From positions 1 to 64,000 of IMG/VR virus record IMGVR_UViG_3300028844_005363: a stretch of 64,000 nt of DNA; one strand, 5' to 3'. The notes under the pieces were generated by a model. It searched no databases and was not told where the DNA came from. It worked only from the letters and a program-made list of their open reading frames with translations. A program made the position numbers and the translations under genes. This document shows positions 481-43,401 of this stretch, one piece after another; position 1 is the first letter of the stretch; each line of letters starts with the position of its first letter. This DNA comes from a virus.

Positions 481-596
481 AGTTGGTTTAATGTTGTGAC
501 GAACATTAAGAAAAGCAGTACCACACTTTACTACCTCAAACCATGTGGCTAAATAAAGGTTAGGAGTACTAATCATTCATTCTGATAAATGAAATG
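481..596 (+). ncRNA. Upstream (3') half of a putative permuted group I intron
   Basis: This non-coding stretch precedes the tRNA 3' half. It contains a perfect 8-bp hairpin (TTAATGTT 488-495 with AACATTAA 502-509), a CCACA/TGTGG pairing (about 521-548), and a CATTCATT/AATGAAATG hairpin just before the tRNA, as a P9-like helix would be. The last base before the tRNA piece is G596, as expected for the terminal G of a group I intron. GAGTAC near 564-569 can pair with GTACTC near 843-848 in the downstream half, which would bring the two halves together. I could not assign P3, P7 and P8 by eye, so the intron class is an inference. Confidence 0.5.
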
Positions 597-672
597 CTAG
601 GGAACTTTCGGTTACATGTTCGATTCATGTATGGGGTGCATACCCCATTAGCTCAATTGGTAGAGCAAAAGT
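597..672 (+). tRNA. Circularly permuted tRNA gene (anticodon AGG by position)
   Basis: The tRNA is encoded with its 3' half first. 3' half: anticodon loop CTAGGGA 597-603, anticodon stem ACTTT 604-608, variable loop CGGTT 609-613, T stem ACATG 614-618, T loop TTCGATT 619-625, CATGT 626-630, acceptor ATGGGGT 631-637, discriminator G638. After CAT (639-641) comes the 5' half: acceptor ACCCCAT 642-648, TA 649-650, D stem GCTC 651-654, D loop AATTGGTA 655-662, GAGC 663-666, A667, anticodon stem AAAGT 668-672. All 7 acceptor, 4 D, 5 anticodon and 5 T-stem pairs are perfect, and T33, A14, GG18-19, A15-T48 and the TTCGA T loop are canonical. The assembled molecule is 73 nt. The AGG anticodon would read CCU (Pro), but G73 and A1-U72 are not usual for tRNA-Pro, so the amino acid is uncertain. 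Confidence 0.85.
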
Positions 673-930
673 CACGCATCGCTTTGAGGGAAGCTTAAAT
701 TCCTCGTTAGCTGTCAGCATTTAGATTTGAGATGTTAGATTTGAAATATTAGATATTTTTTCTTCAGATATTTTTGAATAGATATGAGTTGTCACTAAAT
801 CCTAGACTCAAGTTTACAATGGTTTACTACTTACCAGTTAATGTACTCTAGGCTGTCACACCATTAAACAGGTCTAAGCAATAGACTAAAAACAACCGGC
901 TGGTTCACGATACGAACCACTCAAATTTTG
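673..930 (+). ncRNA. Downstream (5') half of a putative permuted group I intron
   Basis: Immediately after the tRNA 5' half, GCTTT (681-685) pairs with the last five exon bases AAAGT (668-672), giving a P1-like helix with a U-G wobble exactly at the exon end (U672-G681), the hallmark of a group I 5' splice site. A P2-like hairpin follows (GAGGGAA 686-692 with TTCCTC 700-705). The rest is AT-rich with possible long-range pairings (TGAGT/ACTCA about 785-810; GTACTC 843-848 with the upstream half; GGTCTA/TAGACT about 871-887). No open reading frame is visible. The ribozyme core is not assigned by eye; a rotated covariance-model search would decide. Confidence 0.5.
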
Positions 931-932
931 TA

Positions 933-967
933 AGCCATTAGATGTAATTATCTAATGGCTTTTTTTA
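933..967 (+). terminator. Rho-independent terminator
   Basis: AGCCATTAGA (933-942) pairs with TCTAATGGCT (951-960), followed by seven T. It closes the transcript that carries the permuted tRNA, just before the ATPase gene at 992. Confidence 0.85.
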
Positions 968-33710: not shown

Positions 33711-34157
33711 TTAAATGCCGTCCTTATATTTTTCAGTGAATGATCGCATTTCATCTTTCATAGGTTGCATCAACTGTGTAATGCCACTAACTATGTCATG
33801 TTTAATTACCTGAGAAACCAAATAATCTAAAGATACTGGTTTAGGCATATAGTCTACAACACCTAAATGTATCGATTGGCTTAGATTATCAGGGTCATCA
33901 CTACCAGAAACGAATATAACAGGAATGTCCTTAGTTACTTCATTAGACTTCAAGGCTGTGCAAACCTGAAAGCCATCCATGCCTGGCATAACTAAATCCA
34001 ATACTACAAATGAAGGTTTATGTTCTAGGGCATATTCCACTGCTTTTGTGGGATCAGCCAAAGCAATTGCTTTAACTCCCGCACGCTCAAAAGCTTCTAG
34101 GAATACACGCCTATCTAAAGGACTATCATCAATAATAAGTACAGTCGCATTACACAT
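33711..34157 (-). CDS. Stand-alone CheY-like response-regulator receiver
   Basis: 148 residues containing a complete receiver domain: acidic pair IIDDS (D10, D11), phospho-acceptor VVLDLVMPGMDGF (D54), switch residue FVSGSD (S84) and MPKP lysine (K106). No output domain, only about 28 further helical residues. All residues needed for phosphorylation are kept, so it could take phosphate from a host histidine kinase or act as a phosphate sink or CheY mimic. Receiver proteins are uncommon in lytic phages. It is in an operon with the membrane coiled-coil gene 3 nt upstream and converges on the lysis island. Target unknown. Confidence 0.93.
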   Translation of the reverse strand: MCNATVLIIDDSPLDRRVFLEAFERAGVKAIALADPTKAVEYALEHKPSFVVLDLVMPGMDGFQVCTALKSNEVTKDIPVIFVSGSDDPDNLSQSIHLGVVDYMPKPVSLDYLVSQVIKHDIVSGITQLMQPMKDEMRSFTEKYKDGI

Positions 34158-42912: not shown

Positions 42913-43401
42913 CTACTTAACCAGTACCCAATCCTCTGCTAGTAAATCTGACTGTGACGCGACCCAAGGTACAACATCACCATCCACAGATTTTATTGCT
43001 ATGTAGGCACGATAAGAAACATATGGTCCAAACGCAGCTTTAGCCACTTCTGTTTGTGCAGGGTAAATATTTTCAGGTACGTAGTACAGAAACATACCTT
43101 TACCATTCCAGCCCTTACGAGCAACCTTGTGACCTTCTTTAAGCAACACAATAGCATCACCCATAGAAACGCCATACTCAACACCACGATACGCATTATG
43201 GAACACTTCACTAGGCGACCATGAGATATAACCTTTATGGTTTGGGTGATTACTTTCACCGCCATCAACATACTCAACTAAGTAACCTGCATCATCAGTC
43301 TCATCTTCTGGCATAACCCAACCACGATAATCATTATATTGTTGGCGAGTCATTGCAGTACATAGTACTTGTTTGGTTCCAATACACAGCTCATTATTCA
43401 T
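42913..43401 (-). CDS. Tad2-like (DUF2829) protein with N-terminal phage domain
   Basis: 162 residues. Residues about 78-162 are a DUF2829 domain: DAIVLLKEGHKVARKGWNGK, MFLYYVPE, YIAIKSVDGDVVPW and SQSDLLAEDW. This is the family of Tad2, which defeats Thoeris immunity by sequestering the cyclic signalling nucleotide. Residues about 1-72 (MTRQQYNDYRGW, AGYLVEYVDGG, GYISWSPSEVFHNAYR) are a second phage-typical module often found in front of such proteins. Five nt separate it from the gp49-like gene. Family call is firm; anti-Thoeris activity is not shown, since DUF2829 proteins vary. Confidence 0.88.
   Translation of the reverse strand: MNNELCIGTKQVLCTAMTRQQYNDYRGWVMPEDETDDAGYLVEYVDGGESNHPNHKGYISWSPSEVFHNAYRGVEYGVSMGDAIVLLKEGHKVARKGWNGKGMFLYYVPENIYPAQTEVAKAAFGPYVSYRAYIAIKSVDGDVVPWVASQSDLLAEDWVLVK

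What the first reader, a model, noticed from the sequence alone, without database searches (positions are those of the whole stretch)
597..672. Circularly permuted tRNA gene in a phage
The 3' half of a tRNA (597-638) lies upstream of its 5' half (642-672), separated by only CAT. When rejoined at the anticodon stem-loop, every stem pairs perfectly (7 acceptor, 4 D, 5 anticodon, 5 T) and the invariant bases are in place (T33, GG in the D loop, TTCGA T loop, A15-T48), giving a 73-nt tRNA. Permuted tRNA genes are established in some algae and archaea; I know of no textbook phage case, though similar ones may have been reported recently. The full complementarity of four separate helices makes chance very unlikely.
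Basis: seen in the sequence. Interest (0 to 1): 0.95.

Follow-up and report, generated by a model that had tools for sequence, protein, structure and literature searches.

The report
Phage RNA with permuted tRNA-like fold
A bacterial virus carries a small RNA gene whose pieces are those of a transfer RNA in swapped order; comparison with hundreds of relatives shows it is most likely not a working permuted tRNA gene but a member of a known type of tRNA look-alike (YrlA-like Y RNA), of a divergent kind whose usual protein partner is not encoded in this virus.

Summary
At 597-672 a T arm, an acceptor stem closed by GCAT and a D arm follow each other, and AAAGT (668-672) can pair with ACTTT (604-608). 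Rejoined, ARAGORN calls a 73-nt tRNA-Pro(AGG). The virus is N4-like and has no ordinary tRNA in its 74.8 kb record. 'Permuted tRNA gene' is not the best reading. This order of arms is the tRNA-like module of YrlA, the bacterial Y RNA; Rfam RF02553 is the only significant match (E 1.3e-7, below its gathering score). At least 180 modules in IMG/VR and GTDB show the same topology. Acceptor stems are often capped by UUCG/GNRA tetraloops and loop bases 32-34 are not kept, so these are tRNA mimics rather than tRNAs. Modules with YrlA-type flanks go with a Ro60 (TROVE) gene in 20/26 bacterial genomes and 18/20 phage contigs, against 0/10 control genomes. The window phage lacks TROVE and its basal stem is unresolved, so I call it YrlA-like, not a proven Y RNA. 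A second phage class (ACAGCAA flanks) also lacks TROVE (0/17).

The parts
604..608 (+).
   Evidence: Sequence; in relatives the base facing the free position covaries A-T, T-A, C-G in 8 of 8 distinct elements; 45 of 119 elements without an upstream anticodon arm have 5/5 pairs against 2% in shuffled pairings
597..603 (+). CTAGGGA, resembles the 3' part of a tRNA-Pro anticodon loop; one side of an internal loop in the YrlA-like reading
   Evidence: Sequence; GGGA was kept by the search pattern in the relatives, bases before it vary
614..630 (+). T arm ACATG-TTCGATT-CATGT
   Evidence: Sequence; RF02553 and R1 alignments
631..648 (+). acceptor-stem hairpin ATGGGGT-GCAT-ACCCCAT, 7 bp closed by a 4-nt loop, no encoded CCA
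   Evidence: Sequence; fold
651..666 (+). D arm GCTC-AATTGGTA-GAGC
   Evidence: Sequence; RF02553 alignment
668..672 (+). 3' strand (AAAGT) of the helix next to the D arm
   Evidence: Sequence; covariation in relatives
606..670 (+). match to Rfam RF02553 YrlA, model positions 23-85 of 114, 35.6 bits (gathering score 69)
586..598 (+). 5' strands of candidate basal stems: TAAATG 586-591 with 718-723, or AAATGCT 592-598 with 716-722; not resolved
   Evidence: loosened descriptor 5 of 100,000 shuffles, but flank profile HMMs do not find it and R1 does not align it
673..715 (+). 3' linker with a predicted hairpin (GAGGGAA...TTCCTC), longer than in most relatives
   Evidence: folds; a short hairpin in this linker can be read by eye in some relatives, e.g. 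L008 and L397
716..723 (+). 3' strand of the candidate basal stems (AGCATTTA)
932..967 (+). terminator-like hairpin with T run, likely end of the transcript that includes the element
   Evidence: Sequence and fold of 480-980; not tested with the terminator scan

Best explanation
A phage-encoded small noncoding RNA with the permuted tRNA-like module of YrlA-type Y RNAs: a tRNA mimic, not a tRNA precursor. The transcript stays in one piece. A basal stem (its exact pairing not settled here) leads into an internal loop and a 5-bp helix (604-608/668-672), which with the T arm, the capped acceptor stem and the D arm forms the tRNA-like body. The likely mechanism, inferred from the family and not shown for this phage, is that the module is bound as a tRNA by tRNA-binding enzymes or by PNPase, while the basal stem binds a Ro60/Rsr protein supplied by the host. 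If no Ro60 is available, it acts as a free tRNA decoy, for instance for anticodon nucleases. Shown here: topology, family match, covariation of the split helix, linkage of the family to Ro60. Not shown: expression, Ro60 binding, decoy function.
For: RF02553 YrlA is the only significant Rfam match. Relatives with the same module match RF02553 from end to end, including L308 in a second N4-like phage. L308 shares the window's split helix and flank almost letter for letter (CTAGG-AACTTT / AAAAGT against CTAGGGAACTTT / AAAAGT). The split helix covaries. Acceptor loops of the family are UUCG or GNRA in 45 of 75 four-base loops, and only 11 of 183 have CCA after one base. TROVE/Ro60 is found in 20 of 26 bacterial genomes and 18 of 20 phage contigs with YrlA-type flanks, and in 0 of 10 genomes that hold only ordinary tandem tRNAs. 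A 28-sequence bacterial alignment shows basal stems with both-side changes.
Against: The score is half of Rfam's gathering score and covers only the module. Profile HMMs of the YrlA flanks do not pick up the window's flanks, and model R1 aligns them poorly. No TROVE gene was found in the 74.8 kb record. The fold of the whole element is no more stable than shuffles (z -1.0). The 3' linker is unusually long.
Confidence: 0.83

Rival explanations
1. A true circularly permuted tRNA-Pro gene: the transcript is cut and ligated at the anticodon loop, RNase P and 3' processing open the acceptor loop, CCA is added, and a decoding tRNA results.
For: All four helices pair, ARAGORN accepts the rejoined molecule, U33 and the 7-nt loop fit, the split stem is conserved, and CCU is the phage's commonest Pro codon (194 of 348).
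Against: Bacteria and phages are not known to splice permuted tRNAs, and no ligase, RtcB or splicing endonuclease was recognised among the proteins scanned (many small ORFs have no match). Bases 32-34 differ among relatives and U33 is lost in L073, L611, L610, L386 and L615. From general knowledge, bacterial Pro tRNA carries C1-G72, A73 and G15-C48, whereas here they are A1-U72, G73 and A15-U48. No CCA is encoded. Relatives have capped acceptor stems and accompany Ro60.
Confidence: 0.06
2. A natural permuted intron-exon arrangement: the two halves of a group I intron flank the tRNA halves and splice out a circular tRNA.
For: U672 could pair with G681 in a P1-like hairpin AAAGU/GCUUU, another hairpin follows like P2, and 596 is a G, as a group I 3' end requires (sequence).
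Against: No Rfam match to group I introns in 480-900 or 597-1000 even at E 10; no conserved P3-P8 core or 'GAUAUAGUC'-like element seen by eye; relatives with the same split helix have short linkers with no room for an intron. A permuted order cannot be scored by the available tool, so this is not a full test.
Confidence: 0.03
3. A Ro60-independent phage tRNA mimic belonging with the ACAGCAA-type class rather than with Y RNAs, acting as a decoy for tRNA-cutting or tRNA-binding host enzymes. (This is a sub-reading of the best explanation: same topology, different partner.)
For: The window phage has no TROVE; a whole class of permuted modules in tRNA-rich phages lacks it too (0 of 17). L220 of that class shares GGAACTTTCGGTT and AAAAGT with the window.
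Against: The window lacks the ACAGCAA motif. The host could supply Ro60. The structurally similar L308 has YrlA-type TTACTTC flanks. No function is known for either class.
Confidence: 0.3

Closest known systems
[quoted passage not shown]
   Same: Order T arm - closed acceptor stem - D arm, a helix next to the D arm, GTTCGA T loop and GGTAGAGC D arm
   Different: Basal stem and Ro60-binding internal loop not recognisable with confidence; long 3' linker; no Ro60 gene in the record; score below the gathering score
YrlA-like RNA of a second N4-like phage, L308:4192-4304 (IMGVR_UViG_3300028042_000006)
   Same: N4-type primase in the same 74.6 kb contig, no TROVE found, same split helix AAAGT/ACTTT, CTAGG-A before it
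   Different: Has TTACTTC motif and two clear basal stems; different locus
Circularly permuted tRNA genes of algae and archaea
   Same: Halves in swapped order, T arm before D arm
   Different: Those are spliced at a BHB motif and yield working tRNAs with CCA; here no such machinery, variable loop bases, capped acceptor stems in relatives
Two-piece (permuted) tmRNA of alphaproteobacteria and cyanobacteria
   Same: T arm and 3' acceptor strand before the 5' acceptor strand
   Different: tmRNA has no regular D stem; no tmRNA match here

Membership tests
YrlA Y RNA | Permuted tRNA-like module (T arm, closed acceptor hairpin, D arm in this order) | tested here: met
YrlA Y RNA | Helix next to the D arm joining module and basal stem | tested here: met
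   604-608/668-672; covariation in relatives
YrlA Y RNA | Score above the Rfam gathering score | tested here: not met
   35.6 against 69 bits; the phage relatives scanned that match end to end also stay below it (33-54 bits)
YrlA Y RNA | Long basal stem with the conserved Ro60-binding internal loop (AAUGC / CUUGU in the GAATGC type) | tested here: inconclusive
   Loosened descriptor fits, 5 of 100,000 shuffles, but flank HMMs and the covariance model do not
YrlA Y RNA | Ro60/Rsr (TROVE) protein encoded in the same genome | tested here: not met
   No PF05731 match in 74,757 bases; may be supplied by the host, so not exclusive
YrlA Y RNA | Binds Ro60; module modified by TruB and Dus | not testable with these tools
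   needs biochemistry
Permuted tRNA gene | Complete rejoined tRNA cloverleaf | tested here: met
Permuted tRNA gene | Anticodon loop and identity bases conserved in homologues as in a working tRNA | tested here: not met
   loop bases before GGGA vary, U33 lost in five relatives
Permuted tRNA gene | Circular or rejoined transcript | not testable with these tools
   needs RNA from infected cells
Group I permuted intron-exon | Group I catalytic core in the flanks | tested here: inconclusive
   no group I intron match at E 10, but the permuted order could not be scored directly

The most novel reading that the evidence does not exclude
The element belongs to a large, so far unseparated set of phage RNAs with permuted tRNA-like modules that work without Ro60 (the ACAGCAA class and divergent members such as this one), serving the phage as tRNA decoys, for example against host anticodon nucleases.
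Probability: 0.3. Interest if true: 0.72.

Novelty: new variant of a known kind. Interest (0 to 1): 0.42.

Why it matters
The linkage table (Ro60 present with TTACTTC/GAATGC flanks, absent with ACAGCAA flanks) makes a testable split between true Y RNAs and a Ro60-free set, and the N4-like phages of the window and L308 would be simple cases, each without TROVE in its record.

Tried and rejected
(1) Rfam gathering scan of the window: nothing. (2) Group I permuted intron-exon: P1-like hairpin and a G before the 3' half looked suggestive, but there was no family match and relatives lack room for an intron. (3) Profile HMMs of bacterial YrlA flanks on the window: no hit at the locus, so my by-eye flank match AATGC...GAACT / AGCTGTC stays weak; the descriptor that accepts it had its spacing loosened after I had seen the window. 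(4) Close relatives of the AAA-ATPase neighbour: of 80 loci only an apparently identical contig (L121) has the element, and L148 has a different YrlA-like RNA elsewhere, so there are no close homologues for direct covariation. (5) blastn of 560-760 against phages: only tRNA-like scraps. (6) Chance overlap of tandem tRNAs: excluded by the 4-nt spacer and zero ARAGORN tRNAs in the record. (7) The key primary papers on YrlA (Chen 2014, Wang 2018, Sim and Wolin 2018, 2020) are not held; they are known here through PMC8394870, PMC7790460 and PMC7765460.

Full report
Observation. Read 5' to 3', it holds the 3' part of a tRNA (anticodon-stem strand ACTTT 604-608, T arm 614-630, acceptor strand 631-637), four bases GCAT, and the 5' part (acceptor strand 642-648, D arm 651-666, anticodon-stem strand AAAGT 668-672). 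ARAGORN sees no tRNA in the window as it stands, but calls one tRNA-Pro(agg) when the halves are rejoined or the segment is duplicated.

Genome. The window is part of a 74,757-base virus record. Primase, split N4-like RNA polymerases, portal and major head protein place it with the N4-like phages. No tRNA was found in the rest of the record. The element lies in a 515-base noncoding stretch between a tail-fibre-like ORF and an AAA-ATPase gene.

What it matches. Against all of Rfam, the only significant match is RF02553, YrlA (Y RNA-like), at 606-670, 35.6 bits, E 3e-6 in 421 bases and 1.3e-7 in the whole record. The match covers model positions 23-85, that is the tRNA-like module. The gathering score is 69, so by Rfam's own rule it is not a member, but the phage relatives scanned that match from end to end also stay at 33-54 bits. 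In YrlA the module has exactly this permuted order, and the RF02553 consensus shows a helix between basal stem and module. The literature held here describes YrlA as a stem plus a tRNA-like domain that binds Rsr and PNPase and is modified by tRNA enzymes (PMC8394870), proposes that the domain may inhibit an anticodon nuclease (PMC7790460), and states that several phages carry YrlA (PMC7765460).

Relatives. After removing tandem tRNAs as far as simple rules allow, I sorted modules by their flanks: 127 with TTACTTC-like, 23 with GAATGC and 33 with ACAGCAA motifs, out of 253 distinct elements (sorting by simple motifs, so approximate). A 28-member bacterial alignment of the GAATGC type (one of the 28 is a viral contig) gives basal stems with changes on both sides. 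Of 26 bacterial genomes with TTACTTC or GAATGC modules, 20 have a TROVE (Ro60) match; of 10 control genomes chosen because they hold only tandem tRNAs with the same pattern, none does. Of 20 phage contigs with these flanks, 18 have TROVE. Of 17 phage contigs with ACAGCAA flanks, none does; some contigs are fragments.

The split helix. Among 119 modules without an anticodon arm upstream, 45 have five of five pairs and 85 have at least four, against 2% and 15% when the strands are re-dealt among elements. In a scan that fixed only the 3' strand as GGGAACTNT, the base facing N is its complement in all eight distinct elements: A-T in the window and L611; T-A in L073, L614 and L615; C-G in L386, L610 and L612. 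So the helix is real. In the same elements the loop bases before GGGA vary and U33 is often absent, which does not fit a decoding tRNA.

A bridging case. L308 lies in another N4-like phage (74,616-base contig with an N4-type primase), also without TROVE. Its RNA matches RF02553 end to end (40.1 bits), has the TTACTTC motif and two basal stems, and carries CTAGG-AACTTT ... AAAAGT, nearly the window's CTAGGGAACTTT ... AAAAGT. It is the best single argument that the window element is YrlA-like.

Mimic rather than tRNA. In the three flank classes, 45 of 75 four-base acceptor loops are UUCG or GNRA, and only 11 of 183 loops have CCA one base after the stem, so the acceptor stem looks permanently capped. 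In the window the loop is GCAT. From general knowledge, the Pro identity bases C1-G72, A73 and G15-C48 are absent. No RNA ligase, RtcB or splicing endonuclease was recognised among the phage proteins scanned, though many small ORFs have no family match and not every ORF was scanned.

What is not settled. The window's basal stem is unclear: AAATGCT/AGCATTT (592-598/716-722) competes with TAAATG/CATTTA (586-591/718-723) and GGGAA/TTCCT (600-604/700-704). A descriptor of the YrlA basal stem fits the window as well as only 5 of 100,000 shuffles, but I had widened its spacing after seeing the window, while neutral flank profiles and the R1 model do not recognise the flanks. The phage has no TROVE gene and its host is unknown. 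Hence 'YrlA-like tRNA mimic' rather than 'Y RNA'.

Verdict. Observation confirmed; interpretation partly supported. The most likely identity is a divergent member of the YrlA-type tRNA mimics. The function (tether to Ro60/PNPase through a host protein, or a free tRNA decoy) is inference. A correction to my notebook entry: the ACAGCAA tally is 17 contigs, the other two of the 19 named there (L014, L252) having different flanks.

Noticed in passing
L038:1148-1246, L049, L226, L234, L245, L253, L263 and others: A class of permuted tRNA-like RNAs in tRNA-rich phages with stem-ACAGCAA before the anticodon region, often ACGTAAA after the D arm and TGTT after the basal stem; 0 of 17 contigs carry TROVE/Ro60, unlike the TTACTTC/GAATGC class (18 of 20).
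   Followed up: partly
L014:8146 and 8922, L611:7305; L610:7868, L536:2776-3069: Further flank variants of the permuted module (CATCCTTCT and CTTATTTCT motifs), sometimes several copies in one contig; no TROVE in L014, L610 and L611.
   Followed up: partly
TTACTTC-class elements, e.g. L055, L089, L100, L102: Many of these phage RNAs keep a full anticodon arm with ordinary anticodons (Asn GTT, Thr TGT, Lys TTT, Ser GCT are frequent), as would suit anticodon-nuclease decoys.
   Followed up: no
L308:4179-4314: Second N4-like phage with a YrlA-like RNA with two basal stems and the window's split helix, no TROVE in its 74.6 kb contig.
   Followed up: yes
L073, L078, L115: Three near-identical contigs with a permuted module (ATAGT/ACTAT split helix) in a long noncoding region, no ordinary tRNA in the fetched stretches, no TROVE in the L073 contig.
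   Followed up: partly
477-991: A 515-base noncoding stretch around the element with several strong hairpins (487-508, about 904-921) and a terminator-like hairpin at 932-967; most of it is unexplained by a 150-nt Y-like RNA.
   Followed up: no
42913-43401: Protein with a Tad2-like domain (PF11195, Thoeris anti-defence 2), E 4e-25.
   Followed up: no
33711-34157: Stand-alone response-regulator receiver domain (PF00072, E 5e-23) in a phage.
   Followed up: no
L606 (392 kb phage record): Several GAATGC-type YrlA-like RNAs in one jumbo phage record, which also has a TROVE match.
   Followed up: no
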